The notes beneath the pieces are model-generated. The model saw nothing but the letters and a program-made list of their open reading frames with translations, was not told the origin of the DNA and searched no databases. A stretch of DNA of 64,000 nucleotides from Plumapathes pennacea (Eukaryota > Cnidaria > Anthozoa > Antipatharia > Myriopathidae): the NCBI GenBank assembly GCA_964036295.1, contig OZ038469.1, positions 16,921,591 through 16,985,590 on the forward strand. The letters are read 5' to 3'. Both the position numbers and the translations under genes were made by a program. Shown in pieces: positions 4,853 to 44,774 of the stretch (positions are counted from its first letter, which is position 1; each line of letters starts with the position of its first letter).

Positions 4853-4887
<35 letters not shown>

Positions 4888-7224: not shown

Positions 7225-7259
<35 letters not shown>

Positions 7260-19270: not shown

Positions 19271-20016
19271 TCTTCAGTTGACTCCAGCCTGAGAAAACTG
19301 ACCTCGCCGAAATCTGATACGACTATTTGGGGAGTATCAATATTGATATGGATCATGTGTGTGGACGTGCGTAAACAGTAGATAAGTTAAAAACTGGGAT
19401 AGGCTGCGAAAACAGATGAACTGTTATAACTCTGGTGTCAGAATAAATCCAGCTTTGTATTTGACAAGTCTGCACACGAAGATTAAACCAATCAATCGGA
19501 GATGGCTACGGCCACATTTACGTGAAACGACCAATCATAGTTGAGCTGTTTACTTCCTTTATCTAAAGCATTTGAATTACATCATTGGATACTCAAGATC
19601 AGTCAAGGGTAGACAAGGTTGCAACACAATATTGTTAATACTGGCACTATTCATTATTTTTAAATTATTCTATGACAGATTTGCCACATAATAGCGAGAC
19701 GTTTCAGTCACAGGACCTGATGTTTTCATAAATCTAAGTGAGGTTCTCAGTGTTGTACAAAATTACGATTTACCGATACTCTTGTCGTAATCGGAAGCTA
19801 CGTTCTGGAGACAAGTGAGGTTTTAAACTTAGGTGACGCAAGCGGAAGTCGCCAGCTGGAACTACCGCAGTGTCGTAGCATCCCTCCGAATGTTGCAAAA
19901 TACTTAACACAAATTCCTCGATGTCGTCTTATTTCCGAGAAACAGGAATTAAGCACCGATTGCATGCGCACACGCGGAGTAGCCTGGTGACGAAACAAAG
20001 ACTGAACTTCCAATCA
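19271..20016. other. Spacer between GCPII copy B and APLF
   Basis: Unit B ends at 19346. The rest is unique AT-rich sequence holding the upstream region of GCPII copy B and the 3' UTR of APLF. No exon, RNA gene or inverted repeat was recognised. Confidence 0.5.
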
Positions 20017-23000
20017 TCAAACTGGTTTTGTCAACTTTTTGTTTCGTAGAAATCCCCGCGCTTCTGACAACAGTTCATTCACGTCTTCCTCTTCGCCGTC
20101 TTCTTCCTCTTCTCCTACCTTCGCGTCTGGTTTCCAGTCACTATCACCAGACTCCTCGCCATAGCTGCTGCTCTCGCTGTCCGTCAAGAAGCTGTCGTTG
20201 TAGTCGTACGTGTTGGGAGACCCACTGTCGTCGCTGTCGCCCTCTAGAACGCTTTTCTTCGCTGCAAAGTGTGCAAAGAATCAAAAGTAAAACGGTATCA
20301 ATCGAGACCACACTGGCGCTCGTTCCAAGAAACAAAGAGTTAGATCCCACCCCCCCCCCCCCCCCCCCCCCGTATAGACTTGTGCGGGAGTGTGCCCCCG
20401 GTTCTCAAAACCCTTACCCTATTTTTAGACCTGTATCTCAAAAGTCCTCCTTTTTAGGCCTTTATACCAAAAAAGTCACCCTATTTTAGACCAAATACGT
20501 CGACCGTTTACATTTGGCTCGCACTTCGATATCAGATTGATATAACTTGAGTGAACGGGCCTCACAATGACTTACCAGTCTTCCTGGCTGATTTGCGTTT
20601 TGGGCGATCTGAATCTACAGCGCGAAACAAGAAGGAAAACGAAGGATAACGTCATGAGTCCGTCATGCCAAGATGGTGCGAAATGTGTATACGTGTGTTG
20701 CGTTCATGTGCATTATGATGACAATGATGTTTAGAGTTACTGTACAGGTACATGTAACCACACAACAAAAGTAGACTATATTGTCTGCCTGTCCAGCCTG
20801 TCTAAGAGAAGTGAAACCAACACTAGACAGACAGACGTACAGAGGAAATCTCAAACTTTGATTACCTGCAGTGTGTTTGAAATCTTTCTTGTGCTGAGCG
20901 TTCCGTCTGTAGCAGCTCGTGCCGTAAGGGCACTCGGGACGGTTATCATCACTGTCAAGGTCAGAATCAGCTTCCTTGCTTGCATGAGAGTATTCCTGGA
21001 AATGAACTGGGTTTTTCCTGGAAACATAAGGTGAACGTTACACGGAAGAAATACTGAAGCATTACTAGGCTGGAAGTTACTGCTAAATGAGACCAGATTT
21101 GCGTTACACAGAAGAGATTTACCCGCTGGGAGCTAGAAGCATTCGACTGGAATTACTGCTTAACACTGTATTGAATACCAGGCTTGCGTTACGCAGAAGA
21201 AATTTACAGAGAAGCATTCGATTGGAGTTACATTGCCCAACGATACAAGGTTTGCAAGAATGGTTTTTGTTCATAAACTCACAACTGACCTGTAGCAGTT
21301 CGCTCCATACGGACAAGTCGGTAGTATCTTTTCACCTTCGTTCCCATTCTCTTCGCCAGAGCTTTCCTCCTTCAGACTACAAGCACGCTCTTCATTCTGG
21401 CGAGATTGAATCAGAGATGGTATGAACTGTAATTCTGTATTATTGTAATGATAGCGACACAGCTTACCCTGTGAGTGCGCGAAAGAACTCTCATATTAAA
21501 AGTTTTTGCTCTCAGCAAGTTGAGATGTGCAGCTTGATCTTGGGAGTGGAAGGGTAAAGGATGAGCACTTTCTCTGTACTTTAAACAAACGCTTGAGGAC
21601 AAGATTAGGATGTTAACCAAGTTTAAGAATACTAACTGAAGCTGTGGAAGCCACGACATCGTCATTATCGCTGTCAATATCCTGTCTTTTCGCGCCGTGA
21701 GTTCTTCCTCTTTTTCTCTGTGGACTTGCTGTATCACTGTCCTTGATTTCTGAAGCTTCCTCGTCGCTGTCTAGGGCCCCTTTCGTCTTCCTCGCAGTTT
21801 TCTTTGGCGTTCCATTATCACCACCTTCATCTCCTGTTTTTGCAGACTTCGTTTTTGAAGATTGTTTTGCTCTCTTTGGTTTATTGTTGTTTTCTTCAAC
21901 TTTGATCCAGAAAAAAAGTCGTGTTTGAGTATCACAAAATTATTCATTGCACAATCATGCACTACCTCTGTTCTAGTGACATACTATGTAACTTTTGTAA
22001 TCACCTCTTGTGCTTTGCATTCTGTAGTTATTAAACCATGGCCATCTAAAGCCACTCTGCACTAAATTCTATATACACAGACACTGTTTTGTCTTTGACC
22101 TTACTTTACAAGGCAAGCCGCCAAAGAGATCGCAAGCACCACACTAATCCTGTATACCTACTGCAGGATAATAGGGCCTACATTAGGCACAAGAGAATAT
22201 ATAAATAATTATTAGCCCCTTCAGTTGTAAACTAAGATAACCTTGTCTGATTAGCATCAGCAAAGAAACCATTACTTGTGGTCAGAACAGCAGTGAGAAC
22301 CATAACCATCTCACCTTCAGTTTTCATTTTTTCGGCTGTCATTTTCTTCTTCCCTTTGCTTGTTGCTTTAGCTGTAGGCTCCAGCATCCAAGTTGGCAAC
22401 TTGCGTGTCTTCTGCAACGGAGATGCTGCCTCCACATTTGGTTTGGCTTTTGACTGAAGGCTTGTTGAGGAATCTGAAGTATCCTACACAGAAGGAAGAT
22501 ATATATTTCCAAAAATAAAAATAAAAAAATGGAAAACTGTGTTAATCATCTTGACATTTGCTAATTATTTACCTGTGATTTTATCAAAGAAGTTGAAGGT
22601 TCTTCATGTAGCGATGTTGGTTGCCTGCTAGAGGTTCCAGCTTCAGTGATGTCTGGTGTCATTGCTGTAGCACTTGAGGTAGCCTCGTTCCCAGGCTCTT
22701 TCATCTCCTGGCCCATGAAAGAGCCTGGGAATGAGGTTGCACTTGAGGAAGGTTCATAATCCATTAGTTCATCCAATACAGACTCTAGACAAAAATAAAT
22801 AAAAAATAAAAATAACACAAATTTAGCAACTTACCTACAGTAATAATATATTCAAATCAGATTAAATGCAACAATAGAAAAGAATAGAACAATAATTTAT
22901 TTAAAAATTATACTCACCTCCTTTCTTCTTGTGGCCTACATGCAATGACGCTTTATCGGTATGACGATGTTCATCATCTATTTGCCCAGCCTCTTTGTCA

Positions 23001-24177
23001 CATACCTCAACAGTTAAAGGTTTTCTATCAATATAAAACAATCACAAAATATTAAATAATATTGATATTAGTTACTTATAGAATATTAAGACAACTACAC
23101 TTTATTATAGCACAAATATTACGGTACACTTTGATTGATCAATATTAACTGTCCCTTTTAACTTTTTGATTTTATTTTTTTTGGTCTTCTTGGATGATTA
23201 TGGTTCATCAGTAAGACCGATGATGTAAATATATACACACAACTTAATTACCTATAATCATCGGCTGTCGCTTCTTCAGCCCCAGGATTCTTGACAGCTA
23301 CTTCAGATTCTGCACTCTTTGCATACACAACTTCAAAAATATATTTGTTTGGCAGGAGAGAAATGAAATCACCATCTTGCAGTTTCTTTGGTTCATTCTT
23401 TTTCAGGTTCACAAACTTTGTCTTCCCCTTGGGTTTATAGAATGTTGGGTTGGTGTGAATCTGTGATGATTAAATGAAATCACCCCAAACATTAAATGTG
23501 CAAACAAAGAGGGAAAAAAAAGTTAGTCATGACCATTATATTCCATTATCAACCAGAGGACTGCTGTAGTTATGTTTTTTGTTCCAAGGAATGATTAATA
23601 GTTTGGAAAAATCCAGTGTCTAAACCAAAACACATATTTCTGCAGATGTGTTATAAGCCAAGGACAAAACATTAAGCAATCCTCACTCAATCCTTACCGC
23701 ACTTATACATGCACAGCAATGTATTTCTTCAAATAGTTTATTAAAGAAATTATTTTAGGTCTCTCTCACTGGTAAAACTGTCAAAGATCCATCCAAAACC
23801 TCGAGTACAGCATGCGATCTGGAAACATGCTTATCGGCAACCTGAATGTGTGAGAAAAAGGAAGTGGACATCTCATTTTTAGAAACTAACCAAACAAATT
23901 ATGACTATGATTCAACAATTATATATCCTGCATTTGCAAGACATGTTGGCCTCTGTAATCTCCCACATGCAAGAGAAGGAAGCTCTGCTGCGGGGTGGGT
24001 TCTTGTGGCTTGTGCGTCAATTGTATATTTTATATTCATCTCCTACACTTGGAAACTCAAATAAACAATAATGATACTCACTGCTAGCAGTGATCCTCTT
24101 CCCACAGTTGTTTTGCCTGGTGGAATCTCTATTTTTTGTCCGCTATCAACTGCCCTGAGCCAAACGACACCAAACAT
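20017..24177 (-). CDS. APLF: Aprataxin and PNK-like factor (APLF)
   Basis: Scaffold for non-homologous end joining: binds XRCC1/XRCC4 through FHA, Ku through a short motif, poly(ADP-ribose) through PBZ fingers, and histones through the acidic tail. Exons: 24082-24177, 23770-23841, 23252-23460, 22918-23024, 22573-22784, 22315-22483, 21637-21899, 21290-21396, 20866-21017, 20576-20614, 20017-20261; 556 residues (human 511). FHA (about 1-105) has TTVGRGSLL and VSRSHAVLEV. The Ku-binding motif RKLPTWML lies in exon 6. PBZ1 (CPYGANCYRKNPVHFQEYSH) spans exons 8-9; PBZ2 (CPYGTSCYRRNAQHKKDFKH) is in exon 9; both fit C-X5-C-X6-H-X5-H. The C-terminus has YDYNDSFL and DSDWKPD followed by Glu-rich sequence, as in vertebrate APLF. 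Exon 5 contains an exonised foldback sequence. Confidence 0.95.
20348..20371. repeat. Poly-C run
   Basis: A C homopolymer of about 23 bases in the last intron of APLF, less than 100 bp from the final exon acceptor. Confidence 0.9.
22670..22748. mobile_element. Foldback (palindromic) insertion inside APLF coding exon 5
   Basis: Arms GCCTCGTTCCCAGGCTCTTT (from 22682) and its complement ending near 22736 pair over about 22 bp around a 10-base loop. The palindrome is flanked by an exact direct repeat GCACTTGAGG at 22670-22679 and 22739-22748, which looks like a target-site duplication. It adds in-frame residues TSFPGSFMGQEMKEPGNEAT to the protein. The arm motif CCTCGTTCCCAGGCTCTT also occurs at about 42891. 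Confidence 0.8.
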
Positions 24178-24743
24178 CTTATCGTCGGTACGTACTTCAT
24201 ATAAACCGTGACCGCATGTCCTAACGTACTTCCGCCCTCGTTTTGAGTCAAGCTTCCAATATTGTGTAACAGACAAGGAAGAGAGCAACCAACAAACTTC
24301 AGTTCGTCTCAACAGAAAATTAAACAGGTAAATATTCCGACTGTGCTGATTATGAAGAAATTAATATGTATCTTTATACTATCACTAATTTCTAGGCAGA
24401 CTGTACATCACGTCACCATTTATAACGAATGCGAATGCGGTATCATCGTTCAGTGTTTACTCTCACAGTCACTCGACGCTCTCAAGTCGAACAGCACCGA
24501 ATACAGACTGAAAGCATGTTCAGTCGGGGCGCAATTTCAAGACGAATGGCGTGAAACTTGAACTCGAACCAGTTTGGGCTTGTTTTAAACGTCGAACTTC
24601 AGATAAGGCGAATGCAATGCAAATGAGCAAAAGCTATTGTTTAAACTATTAGTTTAGATTGTATTCGACTCATGTGAAGTCCAACGTTTGAAACAATCTT
24701 GATTGATTGTCTGTAATGTGCTTTGTCAGCCCTACAGGGGGAA

Positions 24744-25982: not shown

Positions 25983-26666
25983 ATGAGTACAGGTATAATT
26001 CTTGCCCCAAACCTCCACCACTACTCTAATATATTTTATTACCGACGAAAGTGGGCAAAAATTGGGTTCGCGCGCCATTTTGTTTTACCGGAAGCCGCCG
26101 GGAGGTGAATAGTACTTGATATTCCGAGATTAAGGAGCCAATCAGAGCGTGCGAAAAGCACTATTCACTTGTGTGGTATATACTAACACTGATTATACAT
26201 CTTGCTATAGACATTGAAACATTACTTTCATTTCTGGGATGAATTGTTACCCGTTATCATGATAGCATAATATTGTAAACAGTTTTTCTTTTGTAATACA
26301 CGATGCATATTTATATTTGACTCTGTACAAGTGACATGAAAAATATAGATAAAGTTCTTTAACGGCCTTTTAGGGTCCTGGTGGCAGACCGCTGGACATT
26401 ATGCCATTCCAATTGCATCTGGTGCAATAGCTGCGGTTGGACTTCCTGTTGCAATCGGCGCCATTGGCTTCACTGGCGCAGGAATAACAGCAGGATCTAT
26501 AGCAGCTAAACTAATGTCTGTGTCTGCCATAGCAAATGGTGGAGGGGTGGCTGCCGGGGGACTAGTGGCTACTCTTCAGAGTGTTGGCGCTGTTGGACTG
26601 GGAGCTAAAGCAACAACTGTTGTGGGGTGTTCTACTGCAGCGGTTGTGAAGTTCATCCGGAAGTGA
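25983..26666 (+). CDS. IFI27-like: IFI6/IFI27-like (ISG12 family) membrane protein 1
   Basis: Two coding exons: 25983-25992 (only ten bases, ATGAGTACAG) and 26374-26666, giving 100 residues. Residues 5-12 are Trp-rich (WWQTAGHY). The rest is the ISG12 domain: Gly/Ala-rich hydrophobic helices with [36 protein letters not shown] and VGAVGLGA, ending KFIRK. Vertebrate members are small, mostly mitochondrial or nuclear-envelope membrane proteins that affect apoptosis and antiviral defence; their function in invertebrates is little known. No signal peptide is seen here, unlike the two downstream single-domain genes. The first exon is tiny but follows GT/AG rules and gives the same phase-1 junction as the other three genes of the cluster. 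Confidence 0.85.
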
Positions 26667-27468
26667 TCTGACGTCATGACGACTCAACTTTAATCACATG
26701 ATTTGAATCCGATTAATTTTTGTGTTGAAATCTGGCTATTGCTGGTGTGCATACTGCGAGAGTAAACATCACTGTTGCCTAGTAACAGTGTGAAATCACT
26801 GTGAAGAGTTAATATGCATAGTTCTGTGCGATGAATTGAGATTTGATTGTAAACTTATGATTTATAAATAGATATAGCAAGAAAACTACGCATAGTTTGA
26901 ACGTCCTTTATTTTAAAAAGCGTTAAGTGTTGGTCGACGATCTGCTCATATTTCTCGCTCCCAGCTGTTTAAAGTATCACACATTTCGCACAGACAGCTT
27001 TGTAATAGTCCTAGGAAGGCTTCCTGAAAGTTTCTTGCGAGTCTGATATTCGGCCAAAAAATAAGAATTTTCTGAAAAAAAAAAAAAAAAAAAAAAAATG
27101 GAAAGGCTGTCATTACGAATCATTTTATGGCCTAGTAACAAGGGTTTCTCTGCAAATATACATCAGTTTTGCCTTAATATGAAATTATGATTTATTGCGA
27201 TATAGCAAAAGAAATAAGCTACAAACATTGCACTCAAACAGCTTCTTTATAGTCCCAGGAAAGTTTCCTGAAAGTTTCTTGCGAGTCGGTTCCAGCTTAA
27301 AACGTATCAAGGAAGTCGTTGTGGACGAAACCTTCACATTAGTCAGGCTTATAAATGACAAGAAAGTTTAGACGTAATTTAGGATTAGCCTACTCTTGCT
27401 TTGAAAAACCGGACCCCGAAGACTAAGAGTCGGGCTAAAAAACTGAGTGCTAAAATTTTCCCCGGCAG

Positions 27469-27816
27469 TTATTACACGGGAAGGAGTGCAGTACGGCGGA
27501 GTATTTTTACGAGTCGGTTTTATTTTTTCGAGCCTGCTTCAGGCGAGAAAAAATAAAATTGACGAGTAAAAATACAGCCGTATTGCACGACTTTTCGTGT
27601 AATAAATTGTTTATTACACGACAAACGAAGCAGGGCAAACATTCTCGCCGCGCGCAAAATGGAACAAAAAATGACGCGTTCATAAACTTTGCTTGCGAAA
27701 ACTGATCACGTAAGCTAATAAACCAGTTGATCTGGTTCCTGACGATGCAATACGCTCCCACCTTTGCACTCGTTTTGGCCCGTATTTGCACTTGAAAATG
27801 TGAAGTCGTGTAATAA
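27469..27816. mobile_element. 348-bp TIR element, copy 1 (TTATTACACG ends)
   Basis: Ends TTATTACACGGGAAGG and GAAGTCGTGTAATAA. It has an internal palindrome built on TTTTTCGAGCCTGC and GCAGGCGAG-like sequence. Reverse-complement match to the 350-bp copy at 32153-32502. No transposase. Confidence 0.85.
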
Positions 27817-28173
27817 ATAAACAATATTATCGATGTCCCGTGAGAGTGCGAAGAGGCAAATAGCTAGCTCATTTGTAACTGAAAGAAATACATTTTGTTA
27901 CTGTTGTTCTCCTTTCACAACACGATTTCTCCAGGCACTGCATGATGAGGATTCTCCGGATAGGCTTCTCTTAATTTGTTCGATATTGCAACTCTATCAC
28001 AACACATCACGATTCTCCACCAAAACTACCAGACTACGAGACGTAAAAGTCACGTGATCCAGAAAGACTTCAAAAAAGACATTGGTCTGCACTTCCGGTT
28101 TGTTTTACGTCACGTGACCGCTGATCATTTGGTAACTTCCCCAACTGTGTAGCGCATGCGTCATCTGTAATTA

Positions 28174-28580
28174 TAGTACGTATTCCATGTATGGAACAAC
28201 CGGACGAGCAAATACCTGGCCCAAATACATTGCCCCAACGAGCAAATACGCAACCTTGAATAATAATTAGCTGTAAATACGTGGCGCACGAGCAAATTCG
28301 TGACATTGAATAATAATTAGCCGTAACTTTGCAACTGGATAAACAGTGTTTGGATTATAGTTTAGACTTTAAGGTTGGGGTTAGGTTTAGGGTTAGGATT
28401 AGGGTTATGGTCAGGGTTGGGCCGTAATTTTCGTATATCTATGTATTTCTCACTCGCATCAATTCAATTTACGGCTAATTATTATTCAAGGTTGCGTATT
28501 TGCTCATGGGGCAATGTATTTGCTCATCAGGGCCAGGTATTTGCTTGTCCGGTTGTGCCTTATAAGGAATACGTACTATA
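28174..28580. mobile_element. Foldback element upstream of the NDRG-IFI27 fusion gene
   Basis: Long inverted arms of about 110 bp: TAGTACGTATTCCATGTATG...GGACGAGCAAATACCTGG...CAACCTTGAATAATAATTAG on the left, and CTAATTATTATTCAAGGTTGCG...CCAGGTATTTGCTTGTCC...GGAATACGTACTA on the right. The loop holds GTTAGGGTTAGG-type repeats. It ends 80 bp before the predicted start codon. Confidence 0.85.
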
Positions 28581-28660
28581 TATACCTATCGCATGCGTGC
28601 ATCTATAATAGTTACCAGTTCAGTCCTGATCAGAGCGACGAAGGAGAAACAACGCAAGAA

Positions 28661-31600
28661 ATGGCTGAAGGAAACGAAAACCCAAAGGTGATGAGCAGAC
28701 ATCAATAATGTTTATTTGATAATGTTCTTTTGGTATCAGTACCACGTCGTCTTACAAAGTAATTTTATGTTTACGATGTCTGACAGGTTTTTAAGGTGAA
28801 AGATCTGACGGTTCATGTCGTGGTGAGTATTTACGGCAGCATTTTCGGTGTTCTTGTATTTAGACAAAAGAAAAGCTATATTTCAGTTTCTGAGTTTATG
28901 CATTTCTCTATCAAACCGTTAATTTTTTGTTTTATGTATAAATATCTGGCCTACGAATACAGCGAGCCGCGCCTGATCTTTATGATTAAACTCAGACATC
29001 GTCGCCCCTATATCGTACGTATTTATTTTTACCACAACACACTAGTTTCTCGCTCTCTGACGTCAGGCGCTTTGCTGAGTGAGTCCGCAACTAATTTTGA
29101 CCATGTGATGACGTAAATCGTGGTAAATAAGAGTCCACACCACGGCAAACCAGTGGAAATTTATTTTTTACCACAACATTTAGAAATATACAGGAAACTT
29201 TTGTTGTATTTCGCTGCAAAACGTGACATGCTGGCGTCAGCTGGCGTCAGCATCGTTGTCTGGACTCTTATTTACCACGGTAAATCGACCAATCAGAGAG
29301 CGAGAAACTAGTGTGTTGTGGTAAAATTATTAAATTCACAAACTAAAATCAACGATTTCGTACGTTGGTTGGTTCAATAATTTTAATTTACAAGATAAAT
29401 AACACGACAGGTGGGCGACTAATTGCATGGCCGAGTTAACGAGGAAGTTAGTAATGGATGGGAAATTTTAGTCGATCGGGAGCTCGAGTCGTAAGCTGGC
29501 GCATTTCCCCCAAAACAAAATGTATTACAAAATATCCTGAATTAGATCTTTAATCATTATCCACTAAATAATTGTGAACACAGCAGCTTTTTGGCATTTT
29601 TGTTAGCCTAAGATTAGCAACAACGATGTTCGTATTTCCCTCATGGAGGTGACGTGACATTCCGACCGGAAGGATTAAAACTGAAAATAACATGACTCCT
29701 TTGAACTTGTTTACGTGTGCATTTCCTTGCTACTGTACAGTGATTTTCAACTTGATTCACCCCTCATAAGATAGGAAAGAGCCTATATCGAAACCACAAC
29801 CTATTTCTTTTTGGAGGGGGGAGGGGGGAAGGGGTGGGGCAGGACAGGTGGAACCTCACATTGCAAACAAGGTAGTCAGAGTACCGACTGCAGCAAATAG
29901 AGCGAAGCTATACTGTTTTGCATTTGTCAAGCTGCATGATATTATATCCAATGCTACTCGTTTTATTGCCCATTTCTATATACTTATAGGGAGATGACAT
30001 CAAGCCAGAAGAAAATCAAGAAAAAACTGAAAACAAAAAGAAGAGCATCATGATCACATTTCATGGTGTTGGCATGAATCGTGAGTTAACTACGGCAGAA
30101 GTGTGAATATTCCTCATATTATTTGCATGCACCTTACATTTCATTCATGTCTTATAAATAAATATAGGTATTAAAGAATTTAAGAAACCAAAATTTATTC
30201 TCCAGTACTAACTCCAGGTTTAATATATTATTTTGTTATGGATGTGAGCACTCACTATCAAAGTATTATCAAATTATACTTTGATCAAAAGTTCATTCTC
30301 CACTGTAGTTCTGGGGACTGTAACAGCTGTCTAAAATCTCTTTTTCCTATGTGAGCATGCAGCTCTATTGTCGCGTTCCCAAGCTTACACTTCGCGGGGG
30401 AAAGTAAGACTCGGAGATCGAGAAGTGTCAACCATGTTTAATAAATACACGGTGAAAACTGAAACGGAAAGTAGGGCGATCTAAGTACTAAAGAATACAG
30501 AATGAAGCTCAGATCGCAGGACGGCTACTCACGTTCGGTTCCTGTACTGTGACTTGTAGAAAATTCTCCAGAAAAGATAACTGAAACGATCGACTAAACG
30601 CTACGAAAACACGCTGACTTGGCACAAACAGAAAAAGGGGCGGGCTAGACAAGACCTCGTGGGAAACTGAGCCCGCGAACATTTGGGCCAGAACCGGAAC
30701 TGAACTATAACTATAAATAAACAAGACAGTCTTCCACATCTATTGTTTTTAGGCTTATGATATCTTGTTTGGTCATATTTTTTGGTTAACCATATGGTAT
30801 GAGACCTTTTAATTACCACCTCTGGAGGATAATGGAACAGTATTTTTGAAGGTGTAAGATTGGTATGGGAAAATTTCAAGGTGTGTGATATATGTACCAT
30901 ACTTTTCTCTGCAGATAAGACTTGTTTTGAACAATTTCTCAAGCATGATGCCATTAAAGTTTTACATGAGCAGTTTGTTATTTACCACATTGATGCTCCT
31001 GGACAGGTTGGTTCTCTATTTGTTCATTATTTATTTTTTATAGGTTTTTTGACTTGTGAAGAATGCTATTATAATATTATAATATTAATGAATATTAATG
31101 ATATTAATGATAATATAATATTATATGCATGTGCACCATAATCTTCTTTTGCTGTTCTGTTTTTAGGTGGTCAAAATGAACAAATTAGCTCATGCATTTT
31201 AGTTAGACTGTAAATTTGTCATTTGAACAAAATTATAAACACAAATATTTGTTGATTTTAAAAGCCTTGGTCCAAATGCATTTAATTACTCAGGTATACA
31301 ATATTTTAGAATATTTAGGAATATTACTGACAATATTGCTTTGGATTTAAAATTATTGCTGTGCCTTCTGGAGAGCTTAATTTATATATTTTTAGAGCAT
31401 AAAAAGTCCACTTGAACATGTAAATGAAATAGAAAGCTTGTTTGCAGGAACCTGATGCAGTTACACTGGCTAAAAAGTAAGTCTACTCATGTTTGTTTGC
31501 TCTTAAAAGATCAGTACCCTTTATACATCCCCTCAAAACTAGATAATCTTTGAGAACCTCTTTATATTAGAACCTGAATATGTTATGTGTTTAGGATCAT

Positions 31601-34600
31601 ATCTGCAATCTTAATAGCATCTGTAATTTGCATTTTTATATACTAATCTGCAGCTATCAGTACCCAAGTATAGAGAAACTAGCAGAATGGGTTGGAAGTC
31701 TGATTGAAGAGGAGAAGTAAGTTACACTAAAATGCAGGTTTGACATAATTTTCTGAGTTTGCTCCGAAGTCATTCATGGAAGTTCAATTTACCTTATAGA
31801 TACACTATATATTTATCATTCATTATGTATACATCCAATAATTTTTTTTAAAACTTGTATGTCCTGTGGTGAAAGATTGGATGTGTTTTATAAAGACTCT
31901 TCTGGTTATTTTTTTTTTTTTTTAGGTTGGAAGGCGTGATCTGTTTTGGTTTTGGAGCAGGTGCTGCTGTCATGGCCCATTTAATGGTATATGCAAATCA
32001 AACAATATTAAAATTCTTTCTGGGGGTGTTTTACTGCTATGTTGATATTTGCTGTTATACATTAGGGATAGAGGTTTGTGTTAATTATGACTGGATAATG
32101 TTTAGAACAATTAGATTTTATCTTGTCTTATGCATACAGTAATTATTATGCTTTATTACACGACTTCACATTTTTGAGTGCAAATACGGGCCAAAACGAG
32201 TGCAAAGATGGGAGCGTATTGCACTCGTCAGGAACCAGATCAACTGGTTTATTAGCTTACGCGATCAATTTTCGCAAGCAAAGTTTAACAAACGCGTCAT
32301 TTTTTGTTCCTTTTTTCGCGCGGCGAGAACATTTGCCCTGCTTCGTTCGTCGTATAATAAACAATTTATTACACGAAAAGTCATGCAATACGGCTGTATT
32401 TTTACGAGTCAGTTTTATTTTTTCTCGCCTGAAGCAGGCTCGAAAAAATAAAACCGACTCGTAAAAATACTCCACCGTATTGCACTCCTTCCCGTGTAAT
32501 AACCTCTTTGTATATATATATATATACTTTCAAATGTGTTATGGGTCCAGCTGCCTTAGGGTTGCCTTATCAGACTCCATTATCTCAACTCCAATTGGTA
32601 CGTGTTTCTCTACTTAACTCAGCTCCCTTGACTATGTTGTCTCTCTAATTTCTCGTTTTCTCCAGATATCTAAATGGGTAGACAAAATCAAAGGAATAGT
32701 ACTGGTACTGGAACCAGTGAAGTCTGCAGCAGAAGAGGCCAAGGTAAAATACTTCAATGTGGTCGTTTCACTGTGAGCAATAAATTTATTACCACACTTC
32801 ACATGTTGCATGCACTGTATTCATGCTCCCTGTTTTTTTTTTTTGTTTTTTGTTTTTTCTTTTCAGAAATCACGAAACGTGGGAGCATTCACGAAATCGT
32901 TCCAGGAGTAAGTGCTTTTCTAGTAACAGGTGTATTGTATGCCACTACATTTATAGTGTGCCTTTACATTTAATGTGAATGTATTCGATTCTTTCGGAAG
33001 CTACAAGAATTCTGACTTGCTGGAGAAACTTAAAGCCCAGGAAACCACGTAAGTATTTAGTTTAATTAGCACATTTCAAATGTTACAACATTAAAATGTA
33101 TGCGTTAAATTGCCTTTCTATATAAAGCCCGGATAATCAGTGTTTACAGAACATTGGAATTCGTACCTGAAGCTAATTTATGCACCTGTACAGTTATGTA
33201 TTTCCTGGCCAGGTCAATGCAACCGGTCTTGATGGCTTCCAGCCAATTAGGCCCAATTAAGACTGGATAGCGCGCTGATATGCTGCCGCATGTTCGAAAA
33301 CCGGGGAGAGTTTGAAGCGGGATTGCTTGTGTGACTGTTTGCAGGTCATTTTCTAAAATGCCTCTTGACAAGATAATACTGTTGTCACTTTATATCTTTC
33401 CGTTTCAGGCCTCCTGTGATGATTGTGCGAGGAAAAAACTCTGCATACAAAACACAAGCTGTAAGTTTTGATTGTCACGAGAAGTCCGCCTATCCAAAGT
33501 ATTGTTTCGGCTGCAAAGAAGTCGGTAGAAAATTACGCGACACTAAAAGAAAGCATAGAGAATGTACATAGATTACATATCTTCGAGGATATGTGCGGGC
33601 ACAAACATGCGAGAAACGTAAATCCTAGACGGAAGCAACCTCGATAACTAAATTTGGCGGGAAAACAAGTGAGCATGGTTATCATCAGGACTATTGCCAC
33701 CGTCCTAGAACATTCTTCGATTCTGCAAATATTTTATGTTAATTACAGGAAAACTTGCAGTGTGCTTTAATAAATCGACTTGATTCCAAGAAATGCAACA
33801 TAAACTATATGGACTGTGGAGATAACACACTGGAGAAAAGGGTAAGACTACACTGTTCTGATGTACAGAGCGGTGTTTCTAAGTGGATAACGGCATTTGT
33901 TGTAAACAACTAAAAAATGCCAGCGACGAAAAGAAATACTCAAACGTACGGACACAGTGCACCTGGTTAGATTCGAAGAAGTTGAACCGGAGTATTTTTT
34001 TGTCTTCTAAATTTATAAATTAGTTTTCTACCTCCATGTCGTTATTGTAAATTTCTTTGAAGTGTTTTTAAAGTTTCTTTTTCTGGAGGTAAATTGCCCC
34101 TTATTTTGCTTGTTTTGCCACTTAAATTTGTGGACAGGTTCGATATTTCACTAAGTGCACCTTGTTATTTGCCGTTCCTTGTTTATGTCCCAAAGGCCGA
34201 GTATCACTCTCTTTTTTCCACAGCCAGAGTGCATGGAAAAAGACCTTGTGTCGTTTATTAACGAATGCAACGGTAAGTTACTCGTCTTCACTTTATAACA
34301 GCACGGCACTAATGACGCAACCAGGTATATATAGTTAAATTCAGAAATGGGATTGGGAGATACCCCATCCCCCTCCTCTCTCTCTCCCCATAGTTTAGTG
34401 CTGCTCCTTTGAATTTAAATGAGTCTTGAATTAAATGCTTAATATACAAATGCCATAAAAGAAAGGCTTTTCCTTTTTTTGTTTTTTTGAAGGACCAGTG
34501 GGCGACCAACAAGAGTCCTGGGCGAGTCGCAATGCCGGTAAAATTGCAGCTGGTGTAGGAGGTGGCTTATTGGGCGTGGGCGCTATAGCTGCAGCTCCTT

Positions 34601-34866
34601 TTGTGCTCGCTGCTGCTGGCTTCACCAGTGCAGGAATAGCTGCAGGTTCTTTGGCAGCCAGTATGATGTCTGGAGCGGCGATAGCTAACGGTGGAGCGGT
34701 GGCTGCTGGGAGCGCGGTGGCTGTTCTGCAGGGTGTAGGAGCTGCAGGCTTGGGAGTTGGAGGCGCGGCTGCCGTGGGAGGTGCAGGTGCAGGGGTTGGC
34801 GCGGGGATCGGCGCAGCACTCACATGGTTCCAGAGACGTTTTGGCAAAAAGAAGGAACATAAATGA
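28661..34866 (+). CDS. NDRG-like alpha/beta-hydrolase fold fused to an IFI6/IFI27 (ISG12) membrane domain
   Basis: Exons: 28661-28687, 28787-28822, 29990-30080, 30915-31006, 31448-31476, 31654-31716, 31926-31986, 32666-32743, 32867-32907, 33001-33048, 33409-33460, 33749-33841, 34224-34272, 34493-34866. They close in frame at 377 residues. Residues 1-253 resemble NDRG proteins: FHGVGMNHKTCF, VIYHIDAPGQ, YPSIEKLAEWVG and the elbow CFGFGAGAAVM, where NDRG-type GxGxG replaces the catalytic GxSxG. The fold is therefore probably non-enzymatic, and the NDRG cap region looks shortened. Residues 254-377, all in the last exon, are an ISG12 domain (AAAGFTSAGIAAGSLAASMMS, ANGGAVAAGSAVAVLQG) with a basic end (RRFGKKKEHK). 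No intervening promoter or start exon fits in the 220-bp intron before the last exon. Predicted role: membrane-anchored NDRG-like scaffold; function unknown. Confidence 0.85.
29026..29327. mobile_element. TIR element in intron 2 of the fusion gene
   Basis: Outer arms TTTTACCACAACACACTAGTTTCTCGCTCTCTGA and, at the other end, AGAGAGCGAGAAACTAGTGTGTTGTGGTAAAA. Inner arms GTGGTAAATAAGAGTCCA and GGACTCTTATTTACCACGG. About 300 bp, no coding capacity. Confidence 0.85.
30369..30738. mobile_element. Solo LTR (370 bp) in intron 3 of the fusion gene
   Basis: Begins TGTCGCGTTCCC and ends CTTCCACA (TG...CA). An exact 5-bp duplication TCTAT flanks it (30364-30368 and 30739-30743). No retroviral-type genes are next to it, so it is most simply a solo LTR left by recombination. 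It contains AATAAA and an interferon-response-like core GAAACGGAAA (about 30464). Confidence 0.75.
32153..32502. mobile_element. 350-bp TIR element, copy 2, in intron 7 of the fusion gene
   Basis: Opposite orientation to 27469-27816, with the same TTATTACACG ends and internal palindrome. Conserved stretches include GACTTCACATTTT near one end and ACTCCTTCCCGTGTAATAA at the other. Confidence 0.85.
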
Positions 34867-37264
34867 ATCTACACAGCAGAAGGATCGTGTGTGTCTTGTT
34901 AAAGCGTATTGTGTGGTTCTGGCATCTAACGATTGATTATAAAGGACAATCTTTTCTGTCTTGATTTATAGATTATATACAGCTGTTGCGTTCGTTCAAA
35001 TTAATGTTCTCGTCTGTTGGCCAAGATTTTCACCTCGAACGAATTTGTGTTATATTCAGCCTATGATTGTCGTGTCGTCTCGTAACAGTTGTAGTAAACA
35101 AACTAGATGTATTTTGGAAAGTATGTATGAAGTAAATATATTGATAAGTAAATATATAAAAGGTATTTATGGTTGAGAAAAATGTACGGGATGAATGAAA
35201 GAATAAACGTTTTGACTTACGGCCGCCATTTTATTCTCATTCAGTGAGAGAAGCAAATGCTGACTTATAGTTACGTGTGTACCCGTTGTTGTGGTACCAG
35301 TGGAGATTTCACTAACGGTTAGTTGCAAAACACAAGAATAAATTAACTAGTCGCACGACAAATCCAGTTCAAACAAAGGCTTGTGTGACTTGAATATCCA
35401 CGACGGAAACGGTCTATATACAGCTCCAATTTTTTAGCTCGCGAATCCCACAAAGTGGGATTCAAGTTATTGTAATCACTCTGACTCCCTACTTCTCCCT
35501 GTTGTCAACAACAGAATTTCCAAATAGAGCAGTTGCGGTTTTCCAAGTTTGGTCATGATCAAGGTCGCCTTGCCGTCGTAACAACGCAGTTCAAAAACAA
35601 CAAATCGTCGCAGTTCTTGCGAAATGAGTTGCCAGTCGATCTGTTGCATTTCAGAACCATTATCACCGAGGTTTTGGTAAATTCTCGGTTGTAAGCGTAA
35701 GTCACAGTTTATAAACCCGTGACAGCCCGGGGCGACTTCAGCTAATCGAAATATTTCTATAATTTGATTACAAACTTGCAAATGGGTGTTTCACATTTTA
35801 CGGTCTGCCAACTGAAATATTGACACAAAATAATAACTAGCTAGCTCTTACCGTACCGTTCCGGTATGAAGTGTGGTCAGTTTGTGCACAAAGTTTATCA
35901 AGAAAATTGGGTGGTGCTTGAAACCTTAAACCTTAATACCTGTTGTATTAGGCAGTAATCTTTCGTTCAAGTCGCTCCGCATACATAATTTCAAAAGCTG
36001 TGATTCAAATGCAAACTTGAAAATATCGCGAACAAGAATGGCCCCAAGAACTGATCTTCGCTTTAACTCTTCACATGGCTTTTTCGGGAGCCTTCCGTTC
36101 TTTTGTCGGCAAATATTCCGGCCAATGGTGAAGTTGATATACGGTCGGAAATCGTTCCGACTTCACAAACAAACCATTCCGGCTTTTATTGGTGCCGAAT
36201 ATTAACGCACGATCATTTATCGATTCTTACCTCACACACTCGATAGCATAGTGTCTACAGACAGACAGACAGACACACAAAACTGTACACAACTGAAATA
36301 AGAATTTAAAATTGAACACAACTGACCAAAACCGCAAGTACGTGTCACAAGTGTATCACATTTCACTTAATTATTTAGCTTGAAACTCAGCCAAAAGAAT
36401 AAAATCATACTTTGTTTACGCACGTATTTAGTTTGGATGCAGCCTAAGTTGGAGTATCATGGCCTCTGATAAATATGGAAGTGTCGAAGATAAGTTGTGC
36501 ATGGTATAAACTGAATAAATGAAGTCACGGATAGACTTTTTTCGTTACGGCGCCGGATGTTCTCGTTCCAGTTCAGAGATTCGTCAGTGAAAAATTCTAA
36601 ATTCTCCCATTTCGCGCGCCACACAGTGTTATGAATGTTCACCCTCGAAATCGAATACACGGTTCAGCGAAAGTGGAGGCCCGCGGAAACGGATGCGAAC
36701 TTCCACATACCTAAAATTGAGCAAATTTTACAATGTGACCTTGAGCCAGTTCTAATGCCTAGTTCCGCAAAAGTACTTTTTACAAATTCGCGAGCTCAGT
36801 TACAGCTACCTTGCTGCTTTGATTTTATACGTGTTCTGTTTGCAGCAAAAGTAATGTCGCGCTTTACCATTTCGACCGATCCAAACAAACAACCACAAAG
36901 AGAAGTGTAAGAATGATAAACTTGTGCAAGATAAGAAGTTAAAGAACAGAGTACATTACTTTTTTGACAAATACTCTGGCTACATACAGCGGTGCATTTA
37001 TGCGTTGTGAATAACACGTATACAATGTTCAAAACCAAATTCAGACTAAAACTTTCCGTTGTAGACTGCGCCAAGGCATTCTTTTCAGAAAGGAAGGCCT
37101 GAGTATAGCACTTTGCTGTTTGGCAGTGATCTGTGGCCGTGGACTAGAACCGAGTGTTACGTTTATGACGTTTACTGTGACCGTTTACTGTAGGATTTCT
37201 TGGAACTCATTGAGCACGTGGCAGAAATACAAGCAGGTGTGAAAAACATTTGGAAACTAAGACT
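34867..37264. other. Spacer between the fusion gene and IFI27-like 3
   Basis: Holds the 3' UTR of the fusion gene, a likely poly(A) signal at 35202-35207, a GACA microsatellite at about 36258, and the upstream region of the next gene. Parts of 34935-35290 recur in degenerate form at 39000-39190. Open frames here show no family resemblance. Confidence 0.55.
35202..35207 (+). terminator. Probable polyadenylation signal of the fusion gene
   Basis: AATAAA about 340 bases after the stop codon, the first canonical copy on the plus strand after the gene. Confidence 0.5.
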
Positions 37265-40067
37265 ATGGATCTTCAGGCACGAATGCTTATTTGTTTCGTG
37301 CTAATCTTGACATCTGTGGTCCCGGCTGCACGAGGTGAGAATCACTTGTCTTGTTTAGCTTGGGCAGGTAAAAAATTTTGCCGCGCAATTTTGCCGTTTA
37401 GACGGATGTATCTTGGTTTACCTGAAGACCCTGAAAACGAAGAGCCTTCCGATTAATCTGAATGGCATCCACTTTTTTGTATTTTCGAGCGGCAAACAGG
37501 CTGCATGGTTTATCTTAAAGTGATCTGTATGTACGTAGTACCTCGTATTTCGGTCGATCATCTTGAACTGCTTAAAGGTGGTGTTACACTGGTCGATTTG
37601 CAGCGACGATTTGCACCGCCGATTTGCTCCAAACTCACGCAACGGTGTTGCAAGTGTTTTTGATTCGCTTTCAAAAACTTGCAACGCGTTGCAGCACTGC
37701 AAACATTGCAAAAAATCGTTCGCAATGCGGTGTTCCACCTCAACGACTTTTAGCGCAACATCGCATCGTTGCAAATCGACCAGTGTAACACCGGTTCAGA
37801 CGCCGCTCCTGACATTGCGCCGAACCTAATAGTAATAGATTCGACCCTGGTTTGACATAGGAGCGACTGTTGATTCAAACGGCGAACTTTTTCTGCCGCA
37901 CCAAATACACAACAGTGCTTATGTTTAAGGATACATATTTTTAATTCAAAATAATTTAAAATAATTTATGCAATAGGTACGGCACATGTGAAGAGCGGCG
38001 TCTGAATCAACGTCGCTCCCACGTCGGATTATGGGTTGTTACGAAAACTAAGACCCATGAAAACGAAGACCTAAGACCCAAAAACGAATACCCCCCTAAA
38101 ACTCTCGTAAGACGGCTCATAGGAGCCCGCGCTGTGTTCTGTTACTTTGTGCGAGTGTCTGTTTGATTCCTTCGTAAAACGCAGGGGTTATTACGAAAAC
38201 TAAGACCCCCTCTTAAAACGCACGTAGAATCAAACAGACACCTCCGCTTGACTTTATTCGTTTCACTGTTCGCCCTGGTCGCAACACGGAGGCAGATGTG
38301 CTTGTTACGGCTAATTTGTGATAGGGTCTTAGTTTTCGTAAAACGAAGGGGTTATTACGAAAACTAAGACCCCCCGCTAAAACGCACGTGGAATCAAACA
38401 GACACTCGCACAAAGTAACAGAACACAGCGCGGGCTCCTATGAGCCGTCTTACGAGAGTTTTAGGGGGGTCTTCGTTTTTGGGTCTTAGGTCTTAGGTCT
38501 TCGTTTTCATGGGTCTTAGTTTTCGTAACAACCTCGGATTATGCGACAGCGTCAGTGAAACCCAAGGCCCATTTCAAGCGTCGCGCTACTGCCGTGCCGA
38601 ACTCAACTCAAATTTCTTCAAACAATCGAATTTGCTCATTTGCATTGAGTTCGGCACGGTAGTGGCGCGACCTAATTCAAATATGCCGAACCTACTTGAT
38701 TCAAACGCCGCTCTTTCAAGCATTAGGCAGGTTCGGCACATGTCAGGAGCGGCGTCTGAACCGGGCCTAGCTGGGCACGTTCGATTGAGTCTCTTCCGGA
38801 ATGGGAATAGCGATACTAATAAATATTGATAAAACTTTGCTTTGGAGCTGAAGTATGTAAAGATGTATCGGGAGCTGTTTGAAATGTCAGCGTGAAGGTT
38901 TTGAAACCAATCCCGAAAAAAATTTCCCCCAGAACAAGCATAACTTTGGATAATTTAAGCTACTTCTGCGCATGATGTGGTTCAGTGTATATTAGTGAAT
39001 TATTACAAAGGGCAGCTAGTCTTTCCCGTCTTGATTTATAAATTCTATACGGCTGTTGATGTTGCTGCTGATGTATGGAATGTAAAAATAGATGGTTTTG
39101 ACTCGTGTGGTATCCTGCATGCATGTTTATATTCTCATCAAAGACGTGAAAAACAAATGCTGTGTATCGTTACGTGTACCTGTTGTTTTCTTAGTAGATT
39201 TATAGTGCTCCCTCACGTTATAAATGTTCCAACAAAAATTAAAGAAAAAAGAATTAAAATTAACAGTCAAGTTGAGAATGTTGATCTATTGTAACGGACA
39301 AAAATTATTCATCTACTCACTATCTGTTATTCTTAGTGATCCTTGTAAACATGTACTACCTGCATGTATTTTTCCACTCTAGCACTTGCCAGTCTAACAC
39401 TGATTTCACATCTGTGTTTGGCAATGTTTCAACTAAGTGGATATAACAGCTCCTTCCAACTGAGGTGATTGATGTGACAGAAGACTGATCCTATAATTTC
39501 TTGCATTTTGTCTCTGCAGGGCGGCAGTCCAAAAGCAAACCAGTATCATGGTCCTGGTGGACAGATGTCGTTGAACCTGTATACAAACTTGGTATGACAT
39601 TTGATGATGTTTTCAACACTAGTTATCTGGGTGACTTAAGTATTTACAGGACTATTTCACAGTGAAGAATGAACTTAATAATATTTCTTGTCTTTTTATT
39701 GGCAGCTTCTTCGGAAAGCAAATCTTTGTGGAACACCATTAATTGTAACAAAGTTCCAGCTGCAGCTGGTGCAGTTGCTGGGGTAACTTTTTTTGCGGCA
39801 GCTCCTGCAGCTCTCACAGCCGCTGGCTTCACAAGTGCAGGGATAGCTGCTGGCTCATGGGGTGCCACACTGATGGGTTGGACTGCTTCAGCAACGGGCG
39901 GAGGTGTTGCCTCTGGGAGTATTGTTGCTACTCTTCAGAGTGCTGGAGCTACTGGTGTGGGAGCTACAGCTGCAAGTGCTGTTGGATGGACCACTTTTCA
40001 TATCACCAAGTTCTTTCAAGGAGAATGCCAAAACACTTCAGACAATGATAAGCAAAAAGATGTGTAA
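37265..40067 (+). CDS. IFI27-like: IFI6/IFI27-like (ISG12 family) protein 3 with signal peptide
   Basis: Exons 37265-37334, 39520-39591 and 39706-40067; 167 residues. Exon 1 is a typical signal peptide (MLICFVLILTSVVPAARG). Exon 2 encodes a Trp-rich linker (VSWSWWTDVVEP). Exon 3 encodes the ISG12 domain with AAGFTSAGIAAGSWGATLMG and GGGVASGSIVATLQSAGA, then a hydrophilic tail. The junctions are both phase 1. The signal peptide points to the secretory route, unlike the mitochondrial location usual for vertebrate IFI27. Unspliced, exon 1 continues for 40 more codons as a short secreted peptide ending at 37456. Intron 1 (2.2 kb) is filled with insertions and a decayed duplicate of an IFI27-like 3' region, so the assignment of exon 1 to this gene is less certain than exons 2-3. 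Confidence 0.78.
37580..37792. mobile_element. 213-bp MITE with GGTGTTACACTGGTCGATTTGC ends
   Basis: Left end GGTGTTACACTGGTCGATTTGCA, right end its complement (GCAAATCGACCAGTGTAACACC). The interior is further palindromic around GCAACG / CGTTGC. It abuts the next element directly. Confidence 0.85.
37793..38762. mobile_element. Outer TIR element interrupted by a 500-bp insertion
   Basis: Ends GGTTCAGACGCCGCTCCTGAC and GTCAGGAGCGGCGTCTGAACC are exact complements over 21 bp. Sub-terminal copies of GAGCGGCGTCTGAA and GCCGAACC recur inside. Removing the nested 500-bp element and one copy of its target duplication leaves about 460 bp. Confidence 0.8.
38034..38533. mobile_element. Nested 500-bp foldback element with 10-bp target duplication
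   Basis: Ends GGTTGTTACGAAAACTAAGACCC and its complement. Inverted arms run about 140 bp through AAAACTCTCGTAAGACGGCTC and GTGTTCTGTTACTTTGTGCGAG. The duplication TCGGATTATG lies at 38024-38033 and 38534-38543. The centre repeats GGGTTATTACGAAAACTAAGACCCCC. Confidence 0.9.
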
Positions 40068-43946: not shown

Positions 43947-44774
43947 ATGCATTTTGGAGCCCTAACTTCTGCCTTTGTCGTCGTATTCATTTTGACATCT
44001 GGTAACTATGCAGGTGCTGCAGGTAAGAAGTAAAGCCGTGCTAGTTTAGCCACGATTTTTAGTTACATGACCGCTTTCGCGGTGTCCGTAGAATGTGAGG
44101 CAGAAATCTTTAAATTTACGACACTCTATATTACGTGGTCACCAAGGGCTCGTTATTTTCTTTTTATGGCTCAATCCGAAACAGGAATGATAGAATACTC
44201 GCACAAGTAAAGCAAGCGCAAGGAATGAAAAGGTCTCCATTCTAGTACGTTTTTTTTACAAATCATATTCGCGTGAGCCAGCCCAAGAGAGCTAATGGCT
44301 CATCTTACTCCGACAGCCAGCCAGCCAGCCAGAATATATAAGATACAATTGATTATTTTTTTTGTAGCCAGCTCTGGGCTGCGCAGCTCTTGTCCAGATC
44401 GCGAAAATAAACGCGAATCCCAATTATTTCTTAAAGGAGACTCGGAAGACAAGCAGCAGTCCTGGATGAGGAGTCCAGTCCAGATGGCAAAGGAACATTA
44501 TTGCCAATTTTTTATTGGTGTTGCAGTTGTGATCCTGGTCGTGATCTACTTTCCAGGACTAGTGCTCAATGTTATCGGGTTCACTGCTACAGGAATTGTC
44601 AAAGGCTCCATTGCTGCCTTCATGATGTCCATATCTGCGATACAAAGTGGTGGAGGTGTGGTTGCTGGAAGCTTGGTGGCTATATTTCAGAGTATTGGGG
44701 CCGTAGGTCTGAATCCTCAAATATCAATTGTTTTGGCATTGATGTTCTTGTTTTGTTGGTACTGGTGGGCTTAA
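43947..44774 (+). CDS. IFI27-like: IFI6/IFI27-like (ISG12 family) protein 4, divergent, with signal peptide
   Basis: Exons 43947-44022 and 44368-44774; 160 residues. Exon 1 is a signal peptide (ALTSAFVVVFILTSGNYAGA). Exon 2 starts with about 45 hydrophilic residues containing DKQQSWMRSP, comparable to DQQESWASR in the fusion gene, then the ISG12 core: a first helix that has lost most Gly/Ala (FIGVAVVILVVIYFPGLVL), the conserved ATGIVKGSIAAFMMSISA and GGGVVAGSLVAIFQSIGAVGL, and a last strongly hydrophobic segment ending FCWYWWA. The junction is phase 1. Function unknown. Confidence 0.83.

What the first reader, a model, noticed from the sequence alone, without database searches (positions are those of the whole stretch)
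28661..34866. A single gene fuses an NDRG-like pseudohydrolase to an interferon-inducible IFI6/27 (ISG12) membrane domain
Fourteen exons join in frame without a stop into 377 residues. The N-terminal two thirds carry NDRG signatures (FHGVGMNHKTCF, HIDAPGQ, GxGxG elbow). The last exon is an ISG12 domain. Human NDRG and IFI27 are separate families with no shared architecture, and I know of no described protein with this combination. It could place an NDRG-type scaffold on a mitochondrial or endomembrane surface under stress or immune control.
Basis: partly seen in the sequence, partly recalled or inferred. Interest (0 to 1): 0.88.

Follow-up and report, generated by a model that had tools for sequence, protein, structure and literature searches.

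The report
NDRG gene with swapped ISG12 tail
In the genome of what looks like a coral or sea-anemone relative, a duplicated copy of a stress-response gene (NDRG) seems to have exchanged its normal last exon for the membrane domain of an immune-type gene (ISG12/IFI27), a fusion not seen in the searches done here; no RNA was available to confirm it.

Summary
Fourteen GT-AG exons (28661-34866) join in frame into 377 residues matching Pfam Ndr (8.9e-39) and Ifi-6-16 (4.6e-21). The host genome gave the decisive control: its ordinary NDRG gene, on another contig, has 15 exons. The 13 NDRG exons of the fusion match it in intron phase (13 of 13) and often in length (6 of 13). Cap exon 9 is missing, and where the canonical phase-1 terminal exon belongs, a phase-1 ISG12 terminal exon stands. 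All four ISG12 domains found in the 290-Mb genome lie in this window. Best reading: a lineage-specific NDRG duplicate that came to lie in an ISG12 array and captured a neighbour's last exon, giving a cytosolic NDRG pseudohydrolase with a hydrophobic C-terminal anchor. ISG12 joined to other domains is recurrent: 15 of 36 database hits, none with Ndr. So: a new combination of a known kind. Not shown: the spliced mRNA, membrane location, immune control. The search for a leftover NDRG tail exon had little power.

The parts
28661..28687 (+). fusion exon 1, start codon (MAEGNENPK)
   Evidence: matches MAEGK.. of canonical exon 1
28787..28822 (+). fusion exon 2, 36 nt, same length as canonical exon 2
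29990..30080 (+). fusion exon 3 (..ITFHGVGMN)
30915..31006 (+). fusion exon 4 (HKTCF..HIDAPGQ), 92 nt as in canonical
31448..31476 (+). fusion exon 5, 29 nt as in canonical; weak acceptor (51.3 percentile)
31654..31716 (+). fusion exon 6, 63 nt as in canonical
31926..31986 (+). fusion exon 7 with GFGAGA elbow (no nucleophile), 61 nt as in canonical
32666..32743 (+). fusion exon 8 (SKW..), 12 nt shorter than canonical
32744..32866 (+). intron 8 (123 bp), where canonical cap exon 9 (78 nt, phase 0/0) would lie; no match to it in 32666-33048
32867..32907 (+). fusion exon 9, 41 nt (canonical exon 10 is 104 nt); remnant of the cap
33001..33048 (+). fusion exon 10
33409..33460 (+). fusion exon 11, 52 nt as in canonical exon 12
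33749..33841 (+). fusion exon 12
34224..34272 (+). fusion exon 13, last NDRG exon, ends in phase 1 (FINECN/G) like canonical exon 14 (FIQGCGL/G)
34273..34492 (+). intron 13, the fusion junction; donor score 10.3, acceptor 9.2
34493..34866 (+). fusion exon 14: ISG12/Ifi-6-16 terminal exon with stop codon, phase-1 acceptor
35202..35207 (+). AATAAA, candidate polyadenylation signal of the fusion mRNA
25983..26666 (+). array gene A: short leader exon (MSTG) 25983-25992 (weak donor, 4.0) and ISG12 exon 26374-26666
37265..40067 (+). array gene C: signal-peptide-like exon 37265-37334 (ends phase 1), possible exon 39520-39591 (ends read by eye), ISG12 exon 39706-40067
43947..44774 (+). array gene D: signal-peptide-like exon 43947-44022 (ends phase 1), ISG12 exon from 44437 (weak acceptor, 76th percentile) or from 44368, to 44774

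Best explanation
This is a genuine chimeric gene made by terminal-exon replacement. A DNA-level duplicate of the host's canonical NDRG gene, introns kept, came to lie inside the ISG12 tandem array. Its own phase-1 last exon, the Ser/Arg-rich tail, is not used (and is probably lost), and its phase-1 penultimate donor is spliced to the phase-1 terminal exon of an ISG12 gene. The likely product is a cytosolic, catalytically dead NDRG-type fold with a reduced cap, anchored in a membrane by the C-terminal ISG12 hydrophobic domain: a constitutively membrane-bound NDRG scaffold rather than one controlled through a phosphorylated tail. Shown here: exon homology, phase match, absence of the cap exon, two intact frames with strong junction splice sites. 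Inferred: the spliced mRNA, loss of the old tail exon, membrane insertion, and any stress or immune role.
For: 13 of 13 NDRG exons share intron phases and 6 of 13 share length with the canonical gene at C12:12068038-12072838. Fusion exon 13 and canonical exon 14 both end in phase 1, and the ISG12 exon enters in the phase of the canonical last exon. ISG12 exons of the fusion and of A, C and D are all entered in phase 1; that of D starts alike (G..D.QQxSW) if its weak acceptor at 44437 is right. Junction sites rank at the 99.9th and 99.0th percentile and the donor is the best of the gene's 13. ML tree of 13 rows: the NDRG part groups with the host's canonical gene, 93/87, just under the tool's 95/80 mark. 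NG86 dN 0.38, dS 0.94 for the NDRG part and 0.21, 0.81 for 45 codons of the ISG12 core against gene A. Neutral simulations at 0.3 and 0.47 changes per site: 0 of 2000 runs each stay stop-free. All 4 ISG12 domains found in the genome sit in this window. Hydropathy: 19-residue mean up to 2.09 at 279-297, net +5 over the last 17 residues.
Against: No transcript or protein evidence; three protein searches held no copy of this protein. A possible first exon for a separate ISG12 message lies in intron 13 (34312-34324), and an ATTAAA at 34430 with an in-frame stop eight residues past exon 13 would allow an NDRG-only mRNA. My search for a leftover NDRG tail exon found only weak matches (best E 0.33 in 34273-37264), but it also missed the real homologue of the penultimate exon, 1 of 2 controls failing, so a diverged tail exon could have escaped it. 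The NDRG branch is 1.23 against 0.11 for its sister and is flagged as long, its place unsure. Shared out by branch length (my arithmetic), dN/dS on the fusion's side is about 0.7 by NG86 and about 1.1 by YN00, so average constraint is weak or absent. The fusion could not be folded. GFP-tagged shrimp LvIFI6-16 was dispersed in the cytoplasm of S2 cells (passages of PMC9144789), which does not show a membrane location.
Confidence: 0.68

Rival explanations
1. Two adjacent genes: an NDRG duplicate ending in intron 13 (or in an undetected tail exon), and a separate ISG12 gene whose short first exon (for example 34312-34324, MTQP) lies in that intron.
For: Other array genes have very short or signal-peptide-like first exons with phase-1 donors; gene A's leader is only MSTG. 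A candidate MTQP exon with a donor at the 95th percentile exists. Read-through of exon 13 meets a stop after eight residues and an ATTAAA lies at 34430. A diverged tail exon cannot be excluded.
Against: Mini-exons of this kind occur in 64 of 580 blocks of 220 bp, both strands. The exon-13 donor is the strongest of the gene and matches, in place and phase, the one by which the canonical gene reaches its last exon. No signal-peptide-like exon comparable to those of C and D (donors 10.3 and 11.1) lies upstream: 3 candidates in 26667-34480, donors 6.1 to 6.3.
Confidence: 0.18
2. Both occur: alternative splicing or read-through gives a fusion and also separate NDRG-only or ISG12-only products, the fusion being minor.
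For: As for the two-gene rival; the fast evolution of the NDRG part would suit a by-product.
Against: No recognisable canonical tail for an NDRG-only form was found, though that search had little power.
Confidence: 0.1
3. A decaying pseudogene that happens to be open.
For: Accelerated branch, missing cap exon, and a dN/dS on the fusion's side near 1 by YN00 (apportioned by my arithmetic).
Against: All 13 introns have GT-AG borders. No stop in 254 NDRG codons, against means of 6.4 and 8.2 in neutral simulations at 0.3 and 0.47 changes per site; but 26 of 2000 runs stay open at 0.2 and 105 of 2000 at 0.1. Pairwise NG86 dN/dS below 1 in both parts.
Confidence: 0.04

Closest known systems
Canonical anthozoan NDRG (one relative named ZK1073.1-like by its source; host gene C12:12068038-12072838; P0038-P0047)
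   Same: Exon order and intron phases (host gene), core motifs and inactive elbow; 51% identity over 246 aligned residues to the host gene.
   Different: The fusion lacks cap exon 9 and most of exon 10, and has an ISG12 exon where the VPTLRTRAMSRSSS.. tail exon belongs.
Human NDRG1-3 (PDB 6zmm, 2xmq, 6l4b)
   Same: Alpha/beta-hydrolase family by sequence. The NDRG3 catalytic triad is fully substituted (passages of PMC7022630); a review describes an Asp64/His194 site seen only in NDRG1 (passages of PMC12272907).
   Different: Their cap-like domain (NDRG3 Ala167-Arg233) is mostly missing here, and so is the phosphorylatable C-terminal tail.
ISG12/IFI27/IFI6 (FAM14) family, including shrimp LvIFI6-16
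   Same: Ifi-6-16 domain well over the Pfam cut-off, at the C-terminus. LvIFI6-16 has a signal peptide, one TM region and a C-terminal IFI6-16 domain, like array genes C and D (passages of PMC9144789).
   Different: LvIFI6-16 has 136 residues and human IFI6 130; here a 254-residue NDRG body stands in place of the leader.
Other ISG12 chimeras in the protein database (RING, vault, SLT/lysozyme g, Rad60-SLD partners)
   Same: ISG12 joined to an unrelated Pfam domain in 15 of 36 hits (4 of the 15 rescanned and 1).
   Different: None of the 36 carries Ndr. Some may be gene-prediction errors.

Membership tests
NDRG family | Pfam Ndr (PF03096) above its cut-off | tested here: met
   133.3 bits vs 23.3
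NDRG family | Nucleophile of the hydrolase elbow replaced | tested here: met
   GFGAGA at the elbow, aligned with GVGAGA, GAGAGA or GDGAGA of relatives, one with GAGAGS
NDRG family | Cap-like helical domain | tested here: not met
   Canonical exon 9 absent, exon 10 cut from 104 to 41 nt; alignment gap
NDRG family | C-terminal Ser/Arg-rich tail exon | tested here: not met
   The ISG12 exon follows instead in the spliced model; no convincing tail exon downstream, in a search of low power
NDRG family | Descent from an NDRG gene | tested here: met
   Exon-by-exon homology; tree support 93/87
ISG12/IFI27 (Ifi-6-16) family | Pfam Ifi-6-16 (PF06140) above its cut-off | tested here: met
   75 bits vs 29.1; 79 bits in the genome search
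ISG12/IFI27 (Ifi-6-16) family | Small stand-alone hydrophobic protein | tested here: not met
   377 aa with an NDRG body in the spliced model
ISG12/IFI27 (Ifi-6-16) family | Interferon, viral or stress induction | not testable with these tools
   no expression data
ISG12/IFI27 (Ifi-6-16) family | Membrane (mitochondrial or ER) location | not testable with these tools
   hydropathy is only suggestive

The most novel reading that the evidence does not exclude
A new class of membrane-tethered NDRG protein: an NDRG duplicate captured by an immune gene array, stripped of most cap helices and of its phospho-tail, and given a constitutive ISG12 membrane anchor. It would work as an immune or stress scaffold on an organelle, evolving at immune-gene speed, and would show that ISG12 arrays can act as donors of terminal membrane exons.
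Probability: 0.35. Interest if true: 0.7.

Novelty: new variant of a known kind. Interest (0 to 1): 0.5.

Why it matters
It is a clean case of domain gain: donor array, recipient gene and unmodified paralog are all in one genome, and the swap falls on a phase-1 intron. Vertebrate NDRG1 has a phosphorylated tail and a part in endosomal recycling with Rab4a (passages of PMC12272907). An NDRG whose tail is replaced by a hydrophobic module would be a natural experiment on whether membrane attachment can stand in for tail control. It also points to ISG12 as a recurrent add-on domain in animals. I saw no account of either in the ten answered paper searches, most of whose papers I saw only as listings, in an open-licence library.

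Tried and rejected
Rejected: a cap exon overlooked in the model. Intron 8 is only 123 bp, canonical exon 9 has no match in 32666-33048 and none better than E 1.6 in the whole gene, and the phases fit without it.

Rejected as unlikely: an upstream signal-peptide exon for a stand-alone ISG12 gene B. 3 weak candidates in 26667-34480; by position, two overlap NDRG exons in another frame and one lies in intron 2.

Not settled: a leftover NDRG tail exon. The first search was cut in print; a repeat over 34273-37264 gave only weak matches, and 1 of its 2 controls (the diverged exon 13) failed while exon 4 was found at 4.7e-14. One search was the same script with a wrong option and gave no result.

More ISG12 genes elsewhere: 4 found, all in this window; counts of that tool are lower bounds. 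The Ndr search of the genome found 3 matches in two other genes and did not ring on the fusion's own short exons, so further short-exon NDRG copies may exist.

Led nowhere: a fold of ten database relatives (mean pLDDT 41.5). A protein-query genome search did not complete. Papers with both ISG12 and cnidarian: 0; with Ifi-6-16 and 'Ndr family': 0; two of Ifi-6-16, PF06140, cnidaria: 1, on a fungus. The species was not identified. Tree: P0037, a partial protein, was left out, so 10 of 11 database NDRG hits were used; identities to the canonical gene were computed for 3 of them. In one search one YN00 value (residues 41-150) failed.
Full report
CHECKING THE OBSERVATION. I rebuilt the proposed gene from the raw sequence. 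Fourteen exons between 28661 and 34866, all with GT-AG borders, join in frame to 377 residues. Pfam gives Ndr at E 8.9e-39 (133 bits, cut-off 23) and Ifi-6-16 at E 4.6e-21 (75 bits, cut-off 29). By sequence the N-terminal part matches solved human NDRG1 (2.7e-21), NDRG3 and NDRG2. The elbow reads GFGAGA, with a glycine at the nucleophile position, as in its NDRG relatives.

THE DECISIVE COMPARISON. The window lies in a 290-Mb assembly (G000, contig C8). An Ndr family search there gave three matches: two in an intron-poor gene at C8:5.08 Mb and one on C12; the fusion's own short exons did not ring. From C12 I assembled a 15-exon, 326-residue gene that is 65-66% identical to the three NDRG relatives compared (P0038 from an unnamed source, P0043 of Desmophyllum, P0046 of Actinia). 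Set against it, the NDRG part of the fusion is the same gene exon by exon. 13 of 13 exons have the same start and end phases, and six have the same length (36, 92, 29, 63, 61 and 52 nt) (which counts 14 because it also pairs the terminal exons). Because introns are kept, the copy arose at DNA level (inference). Two changes stand out. Canonical exon 9, 78 nt of the cap, is missing and the next exon is cut from 104 to 41 nt. And where the canonical terminal exon belongs (phase 1, coding VPTLRTRAMSRSSSVGSSGGTRTLSMSED), the ISG12 exon follows, also in phase 1. I found no convincing relic of the old tail exon downstream, but that test is weak: it recovered exon 4 and missed the diverged exon 13.

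WHERE THE TAIL CAME FROM. The window holds three further ISG12 domains, and a genome-wide family search found four in all, every one in this window (such counts are lower bounds). Gene A has a short leader (MSTG). Genes C and D begin with signal-peptide-like exons that end in phase 1. The four ISG12 exons are entered in phase 1. Those of the fusion and of gene D begin alike (G..D.QQxSW), with the caution that D's acceptor there is weak (76th percentile) and another at 44368 is possible. The simplest history is that the NDRG duplicate came to lie upstream of one ISG12 gene and took over its last exon.

IS THE SPLICE REAL? The junction donor is the highest-scoring of the gene's 13 (10.3; 99.9th percentile of GT sites in the window) and the ISG12 acceptor is at the 99.0th percentile; three other sites of the gene are weak (acceptors of exons 5 and 10, donor of exon 7) (scores from a recalled weight matrix). 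The rival is two adjacent genes. Intron 13 contains a possible mini first exon (34312-34324, MTQP), but such candidates appear in 64 of 580 blocks of that size. No good signal-peptide exon for a separate gene lies upstream. Against the fusion, an unspliced exon 13 meets a stop after eight residues, an ATTAAA lies at 34430, and a diverged NDRG tail exon could have escaped me. I have no RNA data, so the splice remains an inference, though a strong one.

IS IT ALIVE? The NDRG part shows dN 0.38 and dS 0.94 against the canonical gene by NG86, 0.42 and 0.69 by YN00. Identity is 63% for residues 41-150, 51% for 1-40 and 39% for 151-254; 45 codons of the ISG12 core show dN 0.21 and dS 0.81 against gene A. 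On an ML tree of 13 rows the NDRG part groups with the host's canonical gene (93/87, under the tool's 95/80 mark), with a branch of 1.23 against 0.11. That suggests a lineage-specific, fast-evolving duplicate; long branches are hard to place. If changes are shared out by those branches and dS halved, the fusion's own dN/dS is about 0.7 (NG86) or 1.1 (YN00) by my arithmetic, so average constraint is weak or absent. Yet the frame is intact. In neutral simulations started from the present sequence, 0 of 2000 runs stayed open at 0.3 or at 0.47 changes per site, 26 of 2000 at 0.2 and 105 of 2000 at 0.1.

MECHANISM. By eye the N-terminus has no signal peptide, so the NDRG part should be cytosolic (inference; no predictor was run). 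The ISG12 part holds the longest hydrophobic stretches (mean up to 2.09 at 279-297; the NDRG core reaches 1.87 at 116-134), and the last 17 residues carry net charge +5, which would suit post-translational insertion of a C-terminal anchor. [quoted passage not shown] By alignment the fusion keeps a segment matching the last cap helix and lacks most of the earlier ones. The human NDRG1 tail is phosphorylated under SGK1 and GSK3, and NDRG1 acts with Rab4a in recycling (passages of PMC12272907). I therefore propose a constitutively membrane-attached NDRG scaffold without tail control. An immune role is suggested only by the ISG12 domain: human IFI6 is reported in mitochondria and ER with antiviral and anti-apoptotic effects (passages of PMC10687481), and shrimp LvIFI6-16 protects against a virus but was seen dispersed in the cytoplasm (passages of PMC9144789).

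NOVELTY. In the full-length search 36 proteins matched; all 36 carry Ifi-6-16, 15 of 36 carry another Pfam domain (8 RING, 3 Rad60-SLD, 2 vault, 2 SLT) and none Ndr (only the 8000 candidates sharing most words were scored). The NDRG-part searches gave 1 hit among 1045 candidates and 11 among 72, all Ndr without Ifi-6-16. These searches need shared exact words, so distant orthologues could be missed. The pairing appears new; the habit of joining ISG12 to other domains is not. Some database chimeras may be gene-prediction errors, though the RING form recurs: four of its eight are from named decapods (Scylla, Panulirus, Cherax, Homarus) and four from unnamed sources.

VERDICT. A well-explained gene structure, a new variant of a known kind. 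It is less exotic than first claimed but better supported, lacking transcript proof.

Noticed in passing
489-9974 and 10003-19346: Recent tandem duplication of about 9.4 kb, pieces 94.5 to 97.8% identical, each holding a minus-strand open frame (8297-8809 and 17660-18172); no Pfam match for the one scanned.
   Followed up: partly
27468-27817 and 32152-32503: A 352-bp repeat in inverted orientation (94%), one copy upstream of fusion exon 1 and one in intron 7; might relate to how the duplicate moved.
   Followed up: no
20867-21001 and about 20000-24300, minus strand: PBZ zinc finger (Pfam 9.9e-14) in what by eye looks like a gene with an FHA-like start; resembles the DNA-repair factor APLF (name recalled, FHA part not tested).
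   Followed up: partly
50717-53665, minus strand: PHD finger and WSD motif matches, like a BAZ1A/ACF1 chromatin remodelling subunit (name recalled).
   Followed up: partly
G000:C8:5075634-5077277 (L001, L002, L006): A third NDRG gene with few introns, very distant from the other two (tree branch over 2).
   Followed up: partly
P0005, P0008, P0012, P0015, P0026, P0029 and others: ISG12 domains joined to RING, vault, Rad60-SLD or SLT domains in crustaceans, fish and unnamed sources; a survey of ISG12 as an add-on module seems worthwhile.
   Followed up: partly
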